From positions 45,046 through 109,045 of the forward strand of contig NCSJ02000135.1 of NCBI GenBank assembly GCA_002812745.2: 64,000 nt of DNA, written 5' to 3'. This stretch comes from Scytalidium lignicola. Its lineage: Eukaryota > Ascomycota > Leotiomycetes. Made by a program: the position numbers and the translations under genes. The notes under the pieces were generated by a model. That model saw nothing but the letters and a program-made list of their open reading frames with translations. It ran no database searches and was not told the origin of the DNA. Position 1 is the first letter of the stretch, and each line of letters begins with the position of its first letter. Shown in pieces: positions 11,299 to 24,771 of this stretch.

Positions 11299-14200
11299 CT
11301 AGTGCAACCGGATTTCCTCTTCATTGACGCCGTTATAATAATCTTTGCTGATACCATGGATATAGCAGTCTCCAATGAGTTTATGTGCGCCCACTCTATC
11401 ACTTTTNACGAAGTAAAAAGAGGATTTCACTACTTCCGAAGATGCTAACGGAGTCTCCTTCATTAACCAGTCGAGAAGCAATGCCAAAATAACCCTTCTT
11501 TGTGACTATAAATCTCCATCCAAGAAAAGATCCGTGAAGAGCATTGAGGTAGCCCTGGCACATAAGATCCTGAGATTGTAGTGCCGAATCTTCTGTTAAA
11601 TTTCGTGTGGCATCTGTAGGATTGTTTTGAAGAATATTCCCATCTTTTGCCGACTGGGTGCTATTAGGAGTAAACCCTCTTTCGAATAGTTCCATTAATG
11701 CAATATACGACCCTTTAAGGCGTGTATACCCGGAATTCGCTATCTGAGGAAATTTGGCATCAGCAATTGGAATTTTCCAGTGCAAATCAGTTCGTTCCAG
11801 AGCAGTATACTGCGAATTGAATCTCTTGATGGCCAAAATTATTTCCTTAAGATACTCATGTGTTCTGGAAGGTACATTGGCTTCAACGCTGACTGAAACA
11901 ACCTCATCTATAATAAGAGTTCCAATCACTAGCTCGTCGTCGATACCAGGCTCGAAGCGTGCATGTAGCTCAAGTCCTGCATCTGGCGCACGTGGTACAC
12001 CACGTCTGATCGATTCATATAGTCTCTCAGGTTTCTGGATGGTCCAGTCCGGTATCCAGGATGGGAAGCGATTTGAATCCTCAACAGAGCGTAAATCTTT
12101 CTTAGAACTCAAACCTGCATTGTACAACATCTTCAAAGTGCGGCCTTGTTCAACAAATGCTCTTCCATATCGAAGAACTATAACTTCAAATGGAGAATTA
12201 TAGTCTGGCGTGAAGCTAGCATGCTTATCCTTGTCAACTGCTAGATTGAGCAGAGCAAAGAAACGGTCACGTTGGATAGATGCTTCCGCATATCTGAAGA
12301 AGTCAAGAAGCCTCAACAACACCCATCCTTCATTGTTGGCTAATTCTTCACGCCGTTTGACCAAGATTCGGAAATGCGAAAACACGTCAACAAGAGACCG
12401 GAATTGTTCTCCGCTGCTCTTGATTTCTCTATCACAATTCTCCACTGCGTTGACAAGGTCATTCCAATCCACAGCCCAGCTGCCGCAAACTATCGTAATT
12501 CTGGCCGCAACTACGGCTTCTTGGATAATCCATACTCTTCGGAACCATGGCCGCGCAAAGAGCGCGACTATTGCCTTCCATATAGGATCGTTAGCAGGAG
12601 GAATGTATCCGTCTCCCCAAGATTTCGGGATTGGGGGCAGATAAGACGGCCAGCTCTTCGGGGCAGAAGCTTTTACCTTGATTTGAAGCAGTGTCTGCAA
12701 CGCGAGGCCACTGTCTTCTTCTTCTTCTCCTAGGTAAGCGGCTACCATGGTGGCTGAATTGAATATGTTCGCCATGAGATGAAGTTGATGGACCTTCTCT
12801 TCCGTATCAACTTGATTAATGCAAATCGCATCCACCCACACCATGACGTGGCGGTTCCTGTCCCGCAGTTTTATTAGGGCATAATGCAGAGTTGGTGTGA
12901 TATGTATTATGCCCTCTGGTGTCCTTATCGATCTATGGGCATGTGCATTTCCCCAGTGATATGAAAGCGCAATATATGGCTCGACAGAGTCTAGTCTACT
13001 GTGATGAACCAATGCTCGGAGTTTTGAGTGACTAGAGCCTGGAAGAATATTGAGAACCCGCATTTCGGTTGAAGCTTCTAGTTTTTTGTACTTGTATAAC
13101 TTAGAACTCCTGCTATCCTTTTTCTGGACGTCTTTGCTGCAATTGAGTTCAGTCAAATATTCTCCATCTTTATGTATCCCAAGCAAACTACGGAAGCCAT
13201 TCCTTGAATGATGAATGGGAGCGAGATGATCAGTTTCAAATTCTTTTCTTGTGATTTCTGCCTTAAGGAACAGCCCGCGAGATAAACGCATGTCATTAGA
13301 GAGATATAGTTGCCATGGGTTCACGTGTAATCGGAAATCGATACCAGAATTCATGTTCGATATCTTTACCAATACTGATACATGTCGAGGTATGGTATCT
13401 GAATCACTTGGAAGCATATATTTCCGAGCCTAAAATGGGGTTTTAGCATGAGATCTTGTCAAATAACAAGCAGATTGCTGCATTCGCGTTCATTCCTGTG
13501 GTTTGCATAAGCTTACCCTTTCAAGTTGCGAGGTACTTAGAGGAAACGCGGATGCTATGTCTTCTACTGTTGATGTTACTTCGAGATGATACTGAGGAGG
13601 TTCACGGCTCCACCGGCGAGCCTTTGAGTATCCATGCCGGATGAACAAGTCATTTACGTCTTGAGAGCCCTTTGCGAGAGTGAATGCTGAATACCTGCTG
13701 CGCTGATCATTGAATGAAGGATATCCCGCTTTTTCCCGTAAGGGGCTTGTCCAATGATACGCAGGATGGTAACTTTTCAGGCGTCTTCTGAGAAAATTTG
13801 AGGTCTGGTATATATTGCCCGGTTAATTCAATACTTTCTGAAGTTTTCTAAATATTTACGTACTATGAGCTCTCCGAGGAATGGAATACTGTCTGACTGC
13901 TCTTGCGTGTTCGAATCGTTAAATTTACGAAACGTTGATTGCAATTCAAACTTTTCCGTAGGAGCGACACCCTTCTCCCATTTAGGTCCTTGCTGTGGAA
14001 ATTCATCTACACTTTCTAATGATGATGTGGAGGATGATGACAGCCTCTGGTAAGCTTTATCGTCATTAGGCTTGGTAAGCTGTCTCTTTCCATCCTTAGA
14101 GCTGTCTCGAGAATGGGTTCCTCTTTCTCTGCTCCTACTTGCCCTTCTCGAGCCCTGTTGCGAGGACTCGCTTTCATTTTCAGAAAAAAAANGAATACTG

Positions 14201-17200
14201 CGTCTCAGAATAAGGCTTGGGGCTTAACTGAGAAAATGACTGTCCATGATGTCTCGTTCCATTAGTTCGAGAGTTATGCTTTCTTTTGCTCCTTCGACGA
14301 CTTTGTCTGTCAGTCTCGCTGTCACTTGTATCATCAGCCCGATTGAAGAATAGTGTACGCCTAGGTACAGTAATCTTCTGCCAGGGTATTTGCGGGCGAT
14401 CTTCATCTTGATCATGCTCTTTTCGAAGTGTCTTTCCTAGAACGCCTTGATGCTGGTTTGGACTCTGATCCGGCGTCTCTTTCACTTTTGACTGGCTCTC
14501 TTCCGAGGGAGGTTGTTTACTCAAAGTGTCTAGTATTTCATTTTCAGTATTTACCATGTCTCTAGGTGGCCGCCTTTGTGTGCTTGTGTTTCCTTAAGGT
14601 TGTTAGCCGCCATTCAAGAAAAGCTTCATTTATTGAAATAAGAGTTGTACCGCTTTTGTTTAGAAACTCGAGAAAATCTCTGGATTCAGGAACTCCTTGC
14701 CTAAGAAATAGATCGCGAATATCCCTTGGGTTCGGCATACTTAAGGCAGAGTGTAAAAGGCTTATATATTTTGGCCCCTCTATGCCGCAGACTTGGGCCA
14801 GTATTTCAACCAATTCATATGGTGGAGCGGTGGCTTTGATGTCCTCCTCAATCATAAAGATATATAGCCAACCTTCTTCTTGAGATTCTGCGACTCTAGC
14901 TGCACTCTCATATCCCCGAATTTCCAGCCCATTGGTGAGAAGAGTCCAAACTTGTTTAACTGTAGTGGCCTGGTACACCAAAATGTTACAAAGGAGAGAA
15001 TAAAGTTTCCCTCGAGATCGGGTTAACGGCGGTATTAATCTTTGTGTATCAGTCAGTCACGAACAAATCTTCAATAATGGCCGTCTAAATTGGAAAATTC
15101 AACCAATCTCAACTAGCACCACGTACCGAGCGATGAACTCTATCTTTCCCATCAAGTAATTAGTATAATCTTCATGTTGCCAGAAATTCCCTCTTGCTGT
15201 CGTCATCCTAGTTGCTAATGATGATAGTTTTCGCTGCCCTAGATGTAGTGTTTCAAGAAACTTGTTCATGTGATAAATCTCATCAGCATCGAATGCTAGC
15301 AGTGGGAGCTTGTTGTGAAAGCTTTGCCATAAGTCAATCCTATCGGCAATATACCAGTCTTTCATTTCCTCTGCACTGCTAAGATGGTGAAATCTGAGTC
15401 CATCTTCTTCAATTCGGATAGGAAAAATTTTGTCCTTCGAGAGGCTACAAACCAGATCTACTACTGCAGCAGAATCGTTCGAAAGTAAAACTTGGTTGAG
15501 ACCCACAAACAATGCAGATATATTAGCTGGCCGGGTCCATTCATTAATCCTTCTTATTTCAGGGATATATCTGTCTACTGCATCATCAGGGACACCAAGT
15601 ATTGCGCAAAAGAATTCTCTACATGATGGATATATTGCACTGATGGAGTGTGGGGACGTGTTTGAGTTATCGCTCTTATTCCAAATGCAATCCTTAGCCT
15701 TGACCCACTCAAATGTCAAATCCGCCGATGGTGGAATGTAAATAATGCTTTGTTCTTTGATCGATTCCCTTGTATCGGTAAGTTTTTAATGAGAAATATT
15801 TAGGAATGTTCTGGAGATCTAGATACCTCAGAAATAAATCCATGTCATTTTTCCTGATCTGAATTTGTTCGTAGACGTATTTTATAGCTTCGGTGGAAAC
15901 CTCTGGTGACATCATATTATGCAGACATTGAAGGTAAAAATCGATATTGGGCTCGACTGAAACCCCTAAGTGACGCAAAAAATTCCAGTCTGAATCCTCA
16001 ACATTAGGAACATCAAGAATGAAATTAGATGTAATGCTGTCAACCTCTGAATCGATATTCGGAAGGGATGTTTGCTTCAGGAGGTGACGTTTACCATCGA
16101 GGCATGAAACGGGTATGCAGGACAATGCAGCTTTCACCTTTTTCTTAGACTCGGTTATTGTTGGATTGGAATCATTGTATCTGTCCTCTTCTATCCAACG
16201 AGAATAATATTTCCATTTATGTCTCAGGAGAGCTAAAACCCTAGAAGACAGGTGATTCTCAAACAGAAATTTGAAGTCATCAGATAGGTCAAAGAAATCG
16301 TCGTATGGTTTTGAGACAAGTCTAGGAAAAGTAGAGAGCTTAAAATGCGTCATCAACCATGACTTCCAATTCTCCGTTCTGTCTGGATATTGCTGAATGT
16401 AATCATGGTGTAGAAACACAAACTTTTCTCTATTGTGCACAAAAAAACTAGTAGCAGATAGCTCGTCGTCCAGAGTCGTGTCTATGTAGAGCGTTGAGCC
16501 TGTGTGACGGCTTCCATTTTCAGCAACAAACCACATCTTTGCTGATTCTGGAGGGTTCCAATTGCAGTTGTAAATGAAGCTTACATGAGACAGTAGATCA
16601 GCTAAAGATAACCCTGAGATATTTGCTTCGTTTGAGTGGAGCTCCAGAATTAGTTGGCAGACATTCATAGTATCGAAGGATTTGACATCGAGAGCATTCA
16701 ACAGCCTTTTTCGATTAAAATCTGCCTCTGCGACAGAGTCAACCACCAATATGTTGAATCCTCCAGGAACACTCAAATTCCCGTCATTCTTAGAGAAGAA
16801 GATAGAATTTCCATTTGCGGCAACCCAGTCTCCTGTTCGCAAAGGAATGATTCTAAGTCGTTTCATCCTTTCAATAGACAACAATAAATTCACTTCAGAA
16901 GAAGAAAGCACGTCGGCTAGCTTGGAGTGCCAATTTTTATCCTTAGTCTGAAATGCATGTGTATCATTCTCGACTAGCCAAGTCAAATCGTCCAGAAATT
17001 CGCCGTGTGTTAGCTGCCTCACACCTAGCTTCTCCAGTGCTAAGAGAGCCTTTGTCCCATATCGTGATGAAAGATATTTAGACTCGGTATGCTTACTTAA
17101 CGTGAGTGGAATTTCATTAGCATCAACGTATTGCTCAGGAACATAGACAAGTGACACGGGCTTCGATAAAGATCTTGAATATGACTGTACGATAGGCTCT

Positions 17201-18452
17201 TTTGTAAGGCTCCTTAAGACACCTTCACGAAAAGAGCTAAAGTTATCTGGGAGATCATTCAGAGGTAGGTAGAGCGGCCAGTGATAATTAGTAAGCTGTA
17301 ATGCAATCGTCTTAATAGCGGCTAGATACGCTTTCTCTAGATCCCTAAGCAGTATATGGTTCCATACATCAGAATCGTCGATATCTTCCCGATTTGCTGT
17401 AAGCGTAAAATCTGCTTGTAGCAGAAACTAATTAATTGTCAGTGAGAGTAGATCAAATCAGTTAAACATTGAAATAATGGGTAAGCGAACAGTGAAGCCA
17501 TAACTCCGAATAGGAAGGAATGCATATGTTTGTTGAATCGACATCTCAGTCTGTGATTGATCGATAGGATTGGGAAACGCCAAGACAATTTCGTATGGGG
17601 GATGATCTGAGCTTTTTTTCTCTTTCAAAACGTGCTTCAGAACCATATACTTGATTAATGTACCATCTTCCTGTAGCACAATGGAGTTGTTATCATTTAT
17701 CGTTTCGTTGAATTTCCTGAGGCGCCTGTCCAGAATCTTTCCATCCTTTTGAACTACCTTCACATTCATGTGCTTTAGCTTTTTGAGGAATATCAGCAAT
17801 CTCGAGTCGATTGAACAAAGTTCTTTGATAAGTTCATCCTCTTTATATTCTTGGGATAGCTGTAAATAAAATGAGGTATGGCCCGGTACCGGTGTTCCAG
17901 GGAAATCATCCCAAATTGGGGTTATCATGCCAAGAGGTTGAGTTTTATCAAATTTGAATGAATATGGATCGGAGAAGATCCACACTTGGTCTGCTGCTTT
18001 GAACACTGACTTGAAGCCGATTCCCTTCTGTCCAATGTAACGACCTGCATGGCTCATTCCAAACTTTGAGCTTTCTGCCGCACTGCAGATAGCATCGACA
18101 TTCTCGGGCTGAAACCCCTTCTCATTGCAATCAACTTGGAGCGAACGATTTTTATACGTGAAGCTAAGAGTTGGCATTTTGGTGTCAAAATCATTGTCGT
18201 CAGCATTTTGGATTAATTCCAGGAGAAAATGAGTCGATTTTTGGTACATTTGTCTGGCAATACTAAACGTTCAGCCGAAGTATTAGCTAGACAGTACACA
18301 ACTTGGGTTTGTTATTCGCTGTCATACACTTCTAGTGTCCTTACTAAAATAGATGCATTACTACCTTTACTTCCAATATCTACAGCCCCCCTCAAACGCC
18401 TGATCCCATCGACGTGTCTCCGTGCTTGCGTAATGGCGTTATCGGTGTCCAT
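11299..18452 (-). CDS. HSP90-like ATPase (NO VEIN/sacsin type) - DUF3883-like - HET fusion protein
   Basis: Exons 18452-18345, 18286-17491, 17427-15827, 15768-15127, 15039-13864, 13804-13517 and 13429-11299 give about 2245 residues. The N-terminal GHKL ATPase (about 36-300) shows the Bergerat motifs ELIQNADDN and IGQKGIGFKS, as in NO VEIN and sacsin. A long helical middle with REDIDDSDVW and IYIPPSADLTFEW follows, then a charged low-complexity linker and a DUF3883/NOV_C-like segment (YHLEVTST, then RARKYMLPSD). The last 550 residues or so are a HET domain: YIALSYHWG, VWVDAICINQ and PWFRRVWIIQEA, ending LIGDCYIHGI. Phases match at all joins only after dropping the Ns at 11407 and 14192 and one base in each of the runs 14575-14577 and 18265-18267. 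HET domains trigger incompatibility cell death; the ATPase may act as sensor or switch (inference). The intron donor at 17490 (GTTCGC) is weak. A decaying gene cannot be excluded. Confidence 0.75.
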
Positions 18453-20099: not shown

Positions 20100-23000
20100 T
20101 CATGTGCTAAGAGCATTCGAAGTTGCTGTGCTCTCAGCACTTGGTCTTACCCCTGAATTTTTCGCCGCCTCGCTCCCTGCGAAGCTCGAAGGGTCGAGTT
20201 TTGCAGTCGTTGTGGCAGAACCACTGATTATTGCTTGCGTTAGAGAACTTTCCTTTTGAGAAATGGAGTTTTGTCTCAAGGAGGTAGTTTTACCACCAGA
20301 ATCGCTAGTATTGTTGGAGTTGCGGGGCGATATTCGTCCCATCTAGAGGGATATGTCAGTCCTGATTGGTTTTGATGAAACTTGGCTGTATGCTTAATAA
20401 TCATTGTTTTACAGACAAGAAAGCAGAAAAGGCTAATGGATATCAAACAGCTGTTGCAAGCGCATGTAAAATGAAGTGTTGAGAATATAAAGAAAAGTGG
20501 CAGATTCAAAGTAACACCGAATGGTAGGAGACCAGATGATAATGGAATAAGGGAGGCAAGGTAAGGGAGAGGTGCCAGAGTAGGGCTATCAAAAGTTCAC
20601 ACAAAATCAGGTACGGGCATCTTGCCTCGGTATATTTCGACGATTGTAAATTCAGGTATGACCGGGTTCCTGAAACTGAGAAGGCAATCGTGCGATCATG
20701 ACCACTCGATATCGACTATACCTTTCTTTATGACGATGAATAATGAATCGGACTTTAAAAATGCTGTTGACTTCTGGGTTGTTGAGGTACGATTAGAGTT
20801 ATCTCGGCTTACCTGTTTGGCAAATCTGAGACCACAGCTATTGCAGAGGTCTCTTTGCCCAGTGGGGCCGCGTCGCCACTCTGGTGTGCTCATTGTGTGA
20901 CAGTTTGAACATTGGCGATGAATATTTCCTCCTCCTTTCCTCCTCTTCCGTTTCTTTTTGTTGGATATGAGACCAGCAAGTTCCTCAGCGAGGACTCTGT
21001 TATTTCTTTCCGTTTGACGGAGCTCAAATTGCCAGCTTGTGCTACGGGTGGCCTGTAGCTCCTCAAATAGACAATCGTCTGACGCTAGAGAAGCGTATCG
21101 AGACCCCTGCACAAGTCTAGAACTACCTGCTATCATTAAGCTAGGTACAGGATTTGTGGATACCGAGGAAGATATATCATGTTGAGATTCGGTATGTGAA
21201 GATGAGAATTGTGTGCTTGGACTTGAGCCTTGCGACTGCTGTTCCATCTTCCAAGGATTCGTAGCCTTGTTACCTTCTTGGGTAGCGTTAAGATTGCTGA
21301 TGGAGTTGCGAGATGATGCCTTCAGTAAACGCGTCTGGGCTACTAAGAAGGAAGGTTTCTGACCCGCGCTAGCATCACCAGGATACAGTGTAGTTTGGGC
21401 TTGTAGAACTAGGCCGCGTTTGTTATGGACCTCATGCTTGTGTGTCACGATCGTGCCTGCTCTAGCCTGCTTAAGAGCGCGTCCAAAGGATATTTTGGAG
21501 TCAGGGCGCATCAGAGCTTGAATGCTCGTCCCGATTAACTCTTCCGGTTGGCGGTCCAGGAGTGTTCTTATGTTCGACGAGATGAATAGGAACATGCCTG
21601 TAGTGGACAATTTAGTCCACATTTCATTTTCTCCAATCCCTCCAGCAGCATCAATATCGGTTCGAGCAAGTGCATATACTGGCCTTTCTCTTCCGACCAT
21701 CACAATATACTTTTGATCCTTTTCATGCTTGAAGGATCCATGGCTTTCAAACCATATATAGCCCTTCTTCTTCCGCCGTATTCGATACACAATATCTACT
21801 GCTGATTCACTTTCTGAATCCCCGAGTTCTCGAGTAACGGGTGCAATATCACTAGGATGACAAATAAAAGACAAGCTCTGTCCAACAAGCTCCGAAGAGT
21901 CATATCCTAAAACTCGTCTGCACGAGGGCGAAACGTATAAGAATAGCCCTTTCGGAGATAACACGTGAACCACGTCATCAGTGTTCTCCAGAAGCACCTT
22001 GTCCCGTATATTCTTAGTCAACTCTGACTCACTGCTATTTGTGAGTGAATTTAGGACGGTTGATAACTCATTACTAGTAAGTAGCTGTCTAGAATCTCCT
22101 TGCAAATTTGCNACAGTCGGGGGGCGCAAGACATATGCCGGCAAAAAAGGTTGAGAATAGTTGATAGTAAATGTGCCACCGCTAGTTGAATCCACAATAG
22201 CACCGGGTCGGTCAAGGATATCCACTTGGAAACCTATGTAATATTTGATCTCGTCGGTATCCCAAGGAATAGGTATCAAAGTCAATAAGTTCATGAAAGG
22301 CTGACCACCTTTACGGTAGTTGATAATACCTCGCTGAACTTCTTTCCTTGCATCAATCCTTCTCTTCAAATAACCAACAGTCTTGTGGTCACAATACATG
22401 CGCTTGACACCAGGTTCGACTTTGCCTTGTGGTGACTGGAGAAAGCGGCAGTTTTGACCGAGAACCTCATGCTTTTTGTATCCTGTTAAGCGCTCAAATA
22501 TTTCTGAAACGTAGATGACAGGGCTATCTGTACTCGTTACATCACAGACGACAAACGCGCAAGACATGTCCACAGTCGCAATGTTGATCTCTGAATCCTC
22601 TCTTGTATTCACCCTCATCAAGGCTCCTGAGACGTCAAGCTCACCAGATGTGGGGATGTTCTGATATTTTACTGGCCCTTCTAACTTTGGTTTCTTTGAA
22701 ACCTGGGTCGTCTGTATTGCTGGTGCCAGCGCAGTCGGAGTAGAGACAGCGTTCGGGGATTCCTGATAAGGAGTGTTTGCTGACATCGGAGAAACTGACC
22801 CAACAATATTCGGGGTTACACTTAAATTCGCCGGCGAATTTAATATTTCTCCTCCTGAGATTGTGATGTCAGGTAAAGGTTGTAGCATAGCAGTCTCCAT
22901 ACCACTAGTTGTCATATTTTCCTGGGTGGTGGGTATATTTTGGTTGTTCATGACATAGCTTGCTCCTAGAGGATCTATATTGCTAGTCTGGTAACTGAAC

Positions 23001-23575
23001 TGGCTGGTATACATGCCTAAAGGGGATTCCTCTGGAATTTGGTCCATGGCAAGTGGGTTATATGGCATCATCCGTTGCATCATCTCGGCCGGCATCTGGA
23101 AACTGCCAGTGTCTACTGACAAGTGACTAGTTGCTTGCATAGATGATGGAAACCCCGCAGATTCAGCTGATATACCCATTCCAGAGCCCATATTCATATA
23201 TGCTGTGTTCAAACCCAAGTCACTGCTAGAGTGGCGTCGTAACTCAGCAGCAACTGGCGGTGTTGGACTTCCGAACTGAAAGTCTTGAAGATTGCCTACG
23301 GATCCTCCAAAATCCATCATAGCTTGTCTGCCAGTGCCATCCTGCAACTGATATGTTTGTGGTAAACTTTGCTGCATCTGAATCTCCTTGTTATTTTGCA
23401 TAATAATATCATCGAGGGACTCGCCCCCAATGGAACTGCTATCGACCTGCATAGGTAACTGTCCGATCGGCGGACCGCCATCGCTCGCAGCACCGATTCC
23501 ATTTCGAAATCCCTGCTCGATCAGCTGCTGCTGCAAGTCGTCCTGGGAATACTGCGTCCCAAAGAACTGATTCAT
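20100..23575 (-). CDS. wc-1: White collar-1 blue-light receptor and GATA factor
   Basis: Nuclear flavin photoreceptor and transcription factor that pairs with WC-2 to drive light and clock genes in filamentous fungi. Exons are 23575-20813 and 20342-20100 (1001 residues). A Gln/Ser/Pro-rich N-terminus precedes the LOV domain at about 325-440, with the photoactive Cys in GQNCRFLQ. PAS-B (about 530-630) and PAS-C (about 650-760) follow. A basic stretch (KKKRKRRKGGG) then leads to one GATA finger, C-X2-C-X18-C-X2-C (CSNC...CNSC), at about 888-912. The 470-nt intron (20343-20812) follows CGLRFAKQ and joins MGRISPRN, the conserved continuation; reading through it would replace the 80-residue tail with a short different one. 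An upstream in-frame Met at 23689 would add 38 residues, but MNQFFGTQ looks the likelier start. The N at 22112 is a third-codon base (Val whatever it is). Confidence 0.95.
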
Positions 23576-24771
23576 GATCCCCGCATCGGCCCAGCCTCGC
23601 TCGTTCTTCCTCAATCTGCGGTGTCTGGAAACCGAGCTCGACTCGTGCAAGCATCGATCCAAGTCCCAGGTTCCACCGAGTTCAAACAATTATACTGTGC
23701 TGCTTGTACCAGCGCTCGACTCGCGCCTTTTTTCGGCTTCGTTATCGCGGCACTCGTCGAGGGATATGCTAGGCACTCGTCAACCTTGGCGCGTTGATGC
23801 GGGCGTTGCAAATGTATATTTCCCACGGCGATTGTAACAACTGAGTCGTCACTCCCGTGGCTTTCCCGGGAACTGAAATGAATGATAGATAGATCAAGTG
23901 ATAACGAGATTGGAGCTCGAGGATAACGAAGTAGCTGGATTGATTTAACAGTGGATAAGGAGTCAGCCTCGACCGTGTTTACGTGTTGTAGCTTGCCCGT
24001 GCCCACCTCCCAATTGCGAGATTACGGCGTGCGCTTGGTTTTTAGTGTCCGGGGAACCTAGATACCCGTAGCTGCGGACACCAAAGCTGCCAGGAGCGTG
24101 CTACCCGTAATCAATTTTGGCCAAGTACTGTAAGCTAGAGTAAAATACAAAGAGAGCAGCTTGGTTGAGGCAGAAAACTTATAGATTAGTGCGTAGAAAT
24201 TATAGATTCCTGCGCATTGCTAATCATGTACATCACCCCGCCACAAGTTGTACGTCCTCTCGGTACCTGTCATTCAACCGTCTGCACTTGCTGGGAATTA
24301 CCGGGGGCGCTAAACCGTTCTCGGACATGATGGCAATGGTGCTTCTGAGCTTATTCAGATGTTGATCTTGTCTTTTTACTGTCATGTTCATAGATCTATT
24401 TATCAACAGATGTGGAATTCATGGATGAGGAAAGAAAATAGCCCGTAGTATGAGCGGAATGATATAGAATTTTGTGCAAAAGACCAGTAACCCCTGTATA
24501 GAACTTGAGACGCCAAAAGGGTTGAACTCAACTACACTGTCATAAAGCCTAGACGATCCTGTTCATCGTTTTCCTTCCTTGTCCCCTAAATCTCTTTGCT
24601 ATGCAGATTAGAGTAGTGATAAAGACACCCTCCATTCCCAAAAAACAAAGGAGAAGTCATGCACGGATATGGTATCATTCTTTAGGGAGTATCTCCTGCT
24701 AGGTCGTCCCTCACTGACTCCTTTAGTCATGGGGAGATATCGTCATTCATCACTTGGCCGTGAATATCATC
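23576..24771. other. WC-1 promoter and leader; Pse1 3' flank
   Basis: This is 1.2 kb upstream of WC-1, moderately GC-rich near 23600-24110 and then AT-richer. It contains short ORFs on both strands, including one of 131 codons on minus that overlaps the WC-1 start region. Long leaders with uORFs are common in fungal regulators, but nothing here proves one. Confidence 0.4.

What the first reader, a model, noticed from the sequence alone, without database searches (positions are those of the whole stretch)
11299..18452. HSP90-like ATPase / NO VEIN protein fused to a HET cell-death domain
What look like separate genes join into one. The exon ending STSQLER at 13517 splices at GTAAGC (intron 13430-13516) in phase 0 into ARKYMLPSD, which is the start of the HET-bearing exon. 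The join restores a DUF3883-like C-terminal segment of NOV proteins (residues before and after match its style), and the HET domain then follows. The result is an N-terminal GHKL ATPase with intact Bergerat motifs, a long middle region and a C-terminal effector, an arrangement like an NLR-type immune receptor. HET domains are known triggers of incompatibility death; sacsin/NOV ATPases are chaperone-like. I know of no described system with this fusion.
Basis: partly seen in the sequence, partly recalled or inferred. Interest (0 to 1): 0.87.

Follow-up and report, generated by a model that had tools for sequence, protein, structure and literature searches.

The report
Fungal immune-type ATPase with death domain
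This fungal gene joins an ATPase related to a bacterial anti-virus protein to a fungal cell-suicide domain; the same join recurs in many ascomycetes, and the old DNA-cutting part beside it has lost its active site, which suggests that fungi exchanged one weapon for another.

Summary
The fusion is real. A paralogue in this genome (contig C90) carries the NOV_C-like segment and HET in one open 766-aa exon, so no splice is needed to prove it. In the window, the splice at 13516/13430 restores NOV_C homology that continues through the join in relatives. Public databases hold 61 further such proteins, from at least five ascomycete classes. The fused HETs form one clade, and HET and ATPase trees agree (r 0.89): probably one old fusion with some HET losses.

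Beyond the finding: the ATPase region matches TmtA (Tiamat), a bacterial anti-phage protein. NOV_C has a PD-(D/E)XK nuclease-like fold; its catalytic D-(E/D)-K set is intact in 71 of 92 readable HET-free relatives and 0 of 62 fused ones, though on the tree this is about one event. Prokaryotic relatives carry other nucleases in the same C-terminal slot.

Best reading, inferred: an ATP-driven immune switch whose nuclease effector decayed while a TIR-like HET death effector took its place. No function was tested. The window copy changes frame at two single Ns, probably assembly uncertainty. My literature searches found no description of this fusion.

The parts
11299..18452 (-). whole gene model, start codon to stop, 2225 residues with X at two Ns
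   Evidence: length and domain order match most fused relatives, 2000-2700 aa
18193..18219 (-). ATPase box I, ELIQNADDN
   Evidence: E, Q, N, D invariant in alignment A2 of 14 rows
18112..18126 (-). ATPase box II, NEKGF (NOV-type)
18001..18033 (-). ATPase box III, GQKGIGFKSVF
17491..18262 (-). exon 2: sacsin/NOV/TmtA-type ATPase domain
   Evidence: PF25794 E 3.5e-9; PADLOC TmtA E 2.1e-46
15827..17427 (-). exon 3: middle (SRR-like) region, TmtA-related in its first 360 aa
   Evidence: PADLOC TmtA E 6.9e-14, profile 304-668/1302
14651..15768 (-). exons 4-5 (15768-15127, 15039-14651): rest of middle region
13891..14592 (-). low-complexity S/R/E-rich linker; frame change at N 14192
   Evidence: the least alike ungapped stretch in most close pairs
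13250..13890 (-). NOV_C-like segment with decayed D-(E/D)-K set (here A, E, T), split by introns 13863-13805 and 13516-13430
13430..13516 (-). intron whose removal joins STSQLER to ARKYMLPSD
   Evidence: GTAAGC..TTTTAG; homology continuous across it
12518..12976 (-). HET domain
   Evidence: PF06985 E 5.5e-30; G000:C39:57563-58021
11299..12517 (-). C-terminal region after HET; frame change at N 11407
   Evidence: aligned with other HET proteins

Best explanation
The gene encodes a single-protein intracellular defence or danger switch. Shown by sequence: an N-terminal GHKL ATPase plus middle region of the bacterial TmtA (Tiamat)/sacsin/NO VEIN family, a linker, a NOV_C domain of a family with a PD-(D/E)XK nuclease-like fold whose catalytic residues are lost here, and a C-terminal HET domain. 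Inferred: a viral, foreign or stress signal is sensed by the ATPase/middle clamp (directly or through a partner); ATP binding or hydrolysis changes its dimeric state; this unmasks or clusters the HET domain, a proposed TIR relative, which then kills or arrests the hyphal compartment. The ancestral C-terminal effector was the NOV_C nuclease; in this clade HET took over and NOV_C remains as a structural adaptor.
For: One-exon fusion in paralogue C90. 61 further fused proteins from at least five ascomycete classes. Fused HETs form one clade against 24 other HETs of this genome (SH-aLRT 93); ATPase and HET trees agree (Mantel r 0.886, 0 of 2000 permutations as high; 18 of 27 bipartitions shared, maximum 2 in 200 label shuffles). 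The ATPase matches anti-phage TmtA. Complete prokaryotic relatives end in NOV_C (29 of 59), HNH_2 (4), Mrr_cat (2) or other domains at E<=0.01, and six scanned whole all match TmtA, so the C-terminal slot is exchangeable. NOV_C models resemble PD-(D/E)XK nucleases; PMC3710099 calls DUF3883 'a novel REase domain' (passage). Catalytic set intact in 0 of 62 readable fused rows and 71 of 92 readable HET-free rows, while both ATPase boxes tested persist in 56 of 61 fused proteins. VcSduA, GHKL ATPase plus PD-(D/E)xK, needs both sites for defence (PMC12137116, passage). The HET domain is reported as sufficient to induce cell death when overexpressed (PMC12881547, passage).
Against: No function, trigger or expression was measured. 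Catalytic decay is essentially one event on the tree (2 changes), so the HET-decay link has no independent replicates, and HET-free relatives of the same clade have also lost the D. On the ATPase tree the HET rows are not one clade (5 changes; p-AU 0.003), so HET is lost in places or the fusion history is more complex; transfer between fungi was not tested. Outside gapped stretches the middle region is not hypervariable in close pairs, unlike many recognition receptors. The window copy has two unresolved frame changes. The HET part gave no TIR match in the fold searches, although these barely tested it.
Confidence: 0.6

Rival explanations
1. A NOV/sacsin-type chaperone or quality-control ATPase in which HET is a proteotoxic-stress death trigger, not an anti-parasite device.
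For: Sacsin is described as a chaperone, and sacsin-DEATH proteins were suggested to serve a suicidal response to overwhelming unfolded protein (PMC3710099, passages). An HSP90-family NCBIfam model matches weakly (E 0.0022, far under its cut-off).
Against: The best-matching family with a described role is anti-phage TmtA, and complete prokaryotic relatives often end in nuclease-type domains; the patchy presence of HET fits defence better than housekeeping (inference).
Confidence: 0.2
2. A heterokaryon-incompatibility (het/vic) gene acting in allorecognition between strains.
For: HET domains occur in many known incompatibility genes (PMC10197012, PMC12881547, passages).
Against: PMC10197012 gives a ratio of 5 of 125 HET genes acting so in Podospora (passage); no hypervariable region in close pairs. 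No population data were available here, so this is weakly tested.
Confidence: 0.12
3. Two neighbouring genes wrongly joined, here and in database models.
For: The window join needs an unproved intron; gene predictors do fuse neighbours. DNA of the 61 database proteins was not seen.
Against: C90 has NOV_C and HET in one open exon; in the window about 60 residues of NOV_C share one exon with HET; one HET clade and congruent trees.
Confidence: 0.03
4. The window copy is a decaying pseudogene of a real fused family.
For: Frame changes at N 14192 and N 11407.
Against: Both lie at single Ns beside runs of 8 A and 4 T; 10 of 11 Ns in the window lie beside A or T runs. The HET exon (2.0 kb) and exon 3 (1.6 kb) are open, and ATPase and HET motifs are intact.
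Confidence: 0.1

Closest known systems
Anti-phage protein TmtA (PADLOC models PDLC03972 and others; that TmtA is the Tiamat system is recalled)
   Same: ATPase and middle region homologous (E 2.1e-46 and 6.9e-14); prokaryotic relatives have the same order ATPase-middle-C-terminal effector
   Different: Intact-looking NOV_C or another domain at the C-terminus in prokaryotic relatives; here NOV_C is catalytically decayed and HET is added; eukaryotic
NO VEIN-type proteins without HET (SACS + NOV_C), fungal and animal
   Same: Same ATPase boxes and NOV_C position
   Different: No HET domain; D-(E/D)-K kept in 71 of 92 readable rows
Sacsin-DEATH and sacsin-TRADD-N fusions of animals (PMC3710099, PMC8195603; passages)
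   Same: Sacsin-type ATPase joined to a death adaptor
   Different: Another death domain, animals, independent fusion (inferred)
VcSduA, Shedu type I-D (PMC12137116; passages)
   Same: N-terminal GHKL ATPase proposed to control a C-terminal PD-(D/E)xK effector
   Different: Another nuclease family (DUF4263), no HET, bacterial; its authors infer direct restriction that spares the host cell
HET-NACHT-WD40 proteins (HET-E/D/R) of Podospora (PMC12881547; passages)
   Same: Nucleotide-binding switch with a HET effector
   Different: NACHT instead of GHKL, HET at the N-terminus, WD40 repeats

Membership tests
HET domain family (PF06985) | Match over the curated cut-off | tested here: met
   105.1 bits vs 22.5
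HET domain family (PF06985) | Conserved motifs A-SY-WG, D-CINQ, RxWFxRxWxxQE (motifs recalled) | tested here: met
   YIALSYHWG, WVDAICINQ, RPWFRRVWIIQE
HET domain family (PF06985) | Induces cell death | not testable with these tools
   needs expression
Sacsin/NO VEIN ATPases | SACS domain over cut-off and three nucleotide-binding boxes | tested here: met
   37.3 vs 32.8 bits; NCBIfam sacsin N-terminal 60.8 vs 50; boxes
Sacsin/NO VEIN ATPases | NOV_C by Pfam PF13020 | tested here: not met
   no hit in the joined 451-aa piece at E<=1
Sacsin/NO VEIN ATPases | NOV_C by homology to NOV-type proteins | tested here: met
Tiamat (TmtA) | ATPase/middle homology to PADLOC TmtA models | tested here: met
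   E 2.1e-46 over profile 33-302 and 6.9e-14 over 304-668 of 1302
Tiamat (TmtA) | C-terminal nuclease with intact D-(E/D)xK, as in about half of the complete prokaryotic relatives | tested here: not met
   residues A, E, T in the window protein
Tiamat (TmtA) | Anti-virus activity | not testable with these tools
   needs infection assays
NLR/STAND receptors | NACHT or NB-ARC domain | tested here: not met
   no such Pfam hit in 8 exon translations at E<=1
NLR/STAND receptors | WD40/ANK/TPR/LRR repeats | tested here: not met
   none in the Pfam scan of the exons
PD-(D/E)XK nucleases (NOV_C family) | Fold, in an intact-type prokaryotic relative (L037) | tested here: met
PD-(D/E)XK nucleases (NOV_C family) | Fold, in the HET-fused type (C90; the window's own segment was not folded) | tested here: inconclusive
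PD-(D/E)XK nucleases (NOV_C family) | Catalytic D and K in the window protein | tested here: not met

The most novel reading that the evidence does not exclude
Ascomycetes hold a fungal branch of the bacterial Tiamat immune family. Once, before the classes of Pezizomycotina diverged, its PD-(D/E)XK nuclease was retired and a TIR-like HET suicide domain took its place, turning a nucleic-acid-cutting anti-virus protein into a cell-death receptor. It would be an NLR-independent, GHKL-based innate immune receptor class with an exchangeable effector slot shared by prokaryotes and fungi.
Probability: 0.45. Interest if true: 0.88.

Novelty: new variant of a known kind. Interest (0 to 1): 0.76.

Why it matters
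Some fungi carry more than a hundred HET genes with few clearly assigned architectures; [quoted passage not shown] This architecture gives one HET group a defined ATP-driven partner with an anti-phage relative, and makes a clear prediction: ATPase site and HET needed, NOV_C catalysis not. It would add fungi to the cases where bacterial defence ATPases were rewired to eukaryotic death domains, and suggests a general rule of effector exchange on one ATPase chassis.

Tried and rejected
Two-gene reading: rejected. Chance neighbourhood of a common domain: rejected (expected about 0.01 per locus). NLR membership: rejected. 'HET replaced the nuclease in independent lineages': not supported; decay needs 2 changes only and the paired tests had 2 pairs. 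'HET fusion arose several times': the ATPase tree alone needs 5 changes and rejects one HET clade, but one HET-domain clade and congruent trees favour one gain with losses; truncated gene models among HET-free rows are not excluded. All trees are quick searches without mixture model. A hypervariable sensor region: not seen in 7 close pairs, one of them HET-free; P0003/P0004 and P0024/P0041 have long gapped stretches that could hide one or reflect gene models. TIR-like fold of HET: no TIR among the listed PDB matches of the 766-aa model, which is no evidence against it because one domain filled the list. P0069 was dropped from the alignment after because its row came from a wrong region. P0066-P0078 were not used in the ATPase tree (71 of 84 rows used). 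The HET tree used 25 further HETs of the 150 scored in this genome (L002, L003, L008 fetched but not used), and 24 aligned. The NOV_C profile was built from 65 rows that include 28 of the 61 fused proteins, so their matching it is partly by construction. Sequence search of the PDB with P0053 gave nothing below E 0.08. PF13020 in the own genome rang at one place only, C177. The species of the window was not identified.
Full report
1. The gene. The window lies in an unnamed fungal assembly of 46.85 Mb. On the minus strand, 18452 to 11299, a multi-exon gene encodes about 2225 residues. Introns (plus coordinates): 18327-18263, 17490-17428, 15826-15769, 15126-15040, 14650-14593, 13863-13805, 13516-13430, all GT..AG. 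The donor of 17490-17428 (GTTCGC) is unusual, but its removal gives YGFTFLLQADF where the family consensus is YGFKFLxQADF. Intron 14650-14593 is the weakest. The frame changes at two single Ns (14192 in the linker, 11407 near the end). I kept these as X and mended nothing.

2. One gene or two? Three tests say one. (a) Paralogue C90 has NOV_C and HET in one open exon of 766 aa. (b) The window's NOV_C query aligns through the join in relatives that end right after NOV_C (P0009, P0011-P0014) and in relatives that go on to HET; about 60 residues of NOV_C lie in the same exon as HET in the window. In C90 the alignment to the window falls into two pieces at an insertion near the join. (c) Database proteins labelled with HET plus SACS and/or PF27504 number 28 among the 78 hits, 25 more among the 39 hits, and 8 more among the 120 listed of 571 hits: 61 in all, of which 56 bear the SACS label. 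PF27504 is not in the local Pfam copy, so its meaning is unknown to me. All 61 match a NOV_C profile at E 1e-3, for 28 of them partly by construction. Lineages looked up for five of them: Leotiomycetes, Dothideomycetes, Eurotiomycetes, Sordariomycetes, Geoglossomycetes, the last from a metagenome-assembled genome. Basidiomycete relatives P0049 (lineage) and P0050 (assignment recalled) lack HET.

3. In this genome six ATPase loci were found. C39 (window) and C90 are HET-fused; C170 is cut by the contig end; C501, C28 and C177 have a NOV_C segment and no HET match close by. 150 HET matches were scored of 228 candidates, so the true number is higher or equal.

4. History. A tree of 71 ATPase regions places HET-bearing proteins in a few clusters (HET label: 5 changes against 23 for shuffled labels). 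Forcing all HET rows, with C170, into one clade is rejected (p-AU 0.003). Yet the HET parts of all 30 fused rows (28 database proteins, C39, C90) lie on one side of a branch (SH-aLRT 93) apart from 24 other HETs of the same genome, and the two trees agree: Mantel r 0.886, 0 of 2000 permutations; 18 of 27 bipartitions shared, shuffled mean 0.19 and maximum 2. The simplest account is one fusion, long co-inheritance, and some HET losses (or truncated gene models); transfer between fungi was not tested. The nearest free HET in the sample is L004; none of the 25 free HET ORFs has a NOV_C match.

5. What the ATPase is. PADLOC's TmtA models match the ATPase exon at 2.1e-46 and the next exon at 6.9e-14; fused P0004 matches at 2.6e-75. 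A pattern scan of prokaryotic species genomes gave 119 relatives, of which the best 80 were kept. Of these 80, 59 are complete by my criterion (at least 1000 aa, not cut) and 21 are not. The last 350 residues of the 59 hold NOV_C in 29, HNH_2 in 4, Mrr_cat in 2, and NucS_C or a helicase in 1 each, at E<=0.01 without regard to curated cut-offs; by regular expression 32 have a D..(E/D)xK pattern, 13 a CxxC..CxxC pattern, 14 neither. Six of the 59 were scanned whole: all match TmtA; the three with ExK ends match a TmtA model into the C-terminus, the three with Zn-cluster ends stop before it. So the C-terminal part is an exchangeable slot.

7. Decay. In the first set of 66 rows the D was present in 0 of 29 readable fused rows, and K in 2 of 30. 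In the enlarged set the full D, (E/D), K combination stands in 0 of 62 readable fused rows (63 aligned) and in 71 of 92 readable HET-free rows (100 aligned); 45 of 203 database proteins had no NOV_C match and were not counted. In contrast 56 of 61 fused proteins keep both ATPase boxes tested, and three HET motifs are found in 54, 58 and 38 of 61 by the patterns. Against over-reading: on the tree this is about one loss plus P0050, and 21 HET-free rows also lack the full set, mostly by the D with K kept.

8. How it probably works. VcSduA shows that a GHKL ATPase joined to a PD-(D/E)xK nuclease can be a defence system in which both sites are needed; its authors propose that the ATPase controls the nuclease (PMC12137116, passages). 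HET domains are reported to induce cell death when overexpressed and are proposed TIR relatives (PMC12881547, PMC10197012; passages). Sacsin-DEATH and sacsin-TRADD-N fusions in animals are a parallel (passages). I therefore infer an ATP-gated receptor with HET as executioner and NOV_C as a leftover scaffold. The trigger is unknown; virus, non-self and proteotoxic stress remain open. Tiamat itself is listed among systems of unknown mechanism (PMC10482375, passage).

9. Literature. Searches of the open-access library: searches returned no paper; one search returned one paper, in which sacsin and heterokaryon incompatibility stand apart (passages); the listings (18 papers; 7; 4; 25 of 61) show none on this fusion by title and start of abstract. 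Subscription papers and preprints are not covered. By term search, the main texts of PMC10197012 and PMC12881547 do not hold 'sacsin' or 'HSP90', nor the former 'DUF3883' or 'HATPase'. No paper was read whole.

Noticed in passing
window 91, 1638, 3278, 11407, 14192, 19265, 22112, 35418, 38766, 42846, 48888: Eleven single Ns, 10 of them beside A or T runs, several inside coding exons; looks like an assembly habit, so frames near them are unsure.
   Followed up: partly
window 20696-23689 (-): Large ORF with PAS-like stretches and a C-terminal GATA-type zinc finger, resembling the blue-light regulator White Collar-1, next to the finding (label recalled, not searched).
   Followed up: no
L099, L096, L053, L090 C-termini: Prokaryotic TmtA relatives with Zn-cluster (HNH-like) ends instead of NOV_C: 13 of 59 by a CxxC..CxxC pattern, 4 of 59 by Pfam HNH_2. 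Effector exchange within the family.
   Followed up: partly
P0195, P0203 (Verticillium albo-atrum): HET-free, D-less NOV-type proteins labelled with PF00293 (NUDIX, name recalled): possibly another C-terminal effector, or a gene-model artefact.
   Followed up: no
P0074-P0076: Sacsin-type proteins from unnamed sources with PF01841 (transglutaminase-like, name recalled).
   Followed up: no
G000 contigs: 150 HET-domain matches scored of 228 candidates in this genome, a large expansion.
   Followed up: partly
G000:C170:1-6500 (L017): Third paralogue close to C90 but cut by the contig end before NOV_C, so whether it carries HET is unknown.
   Followed up: partly
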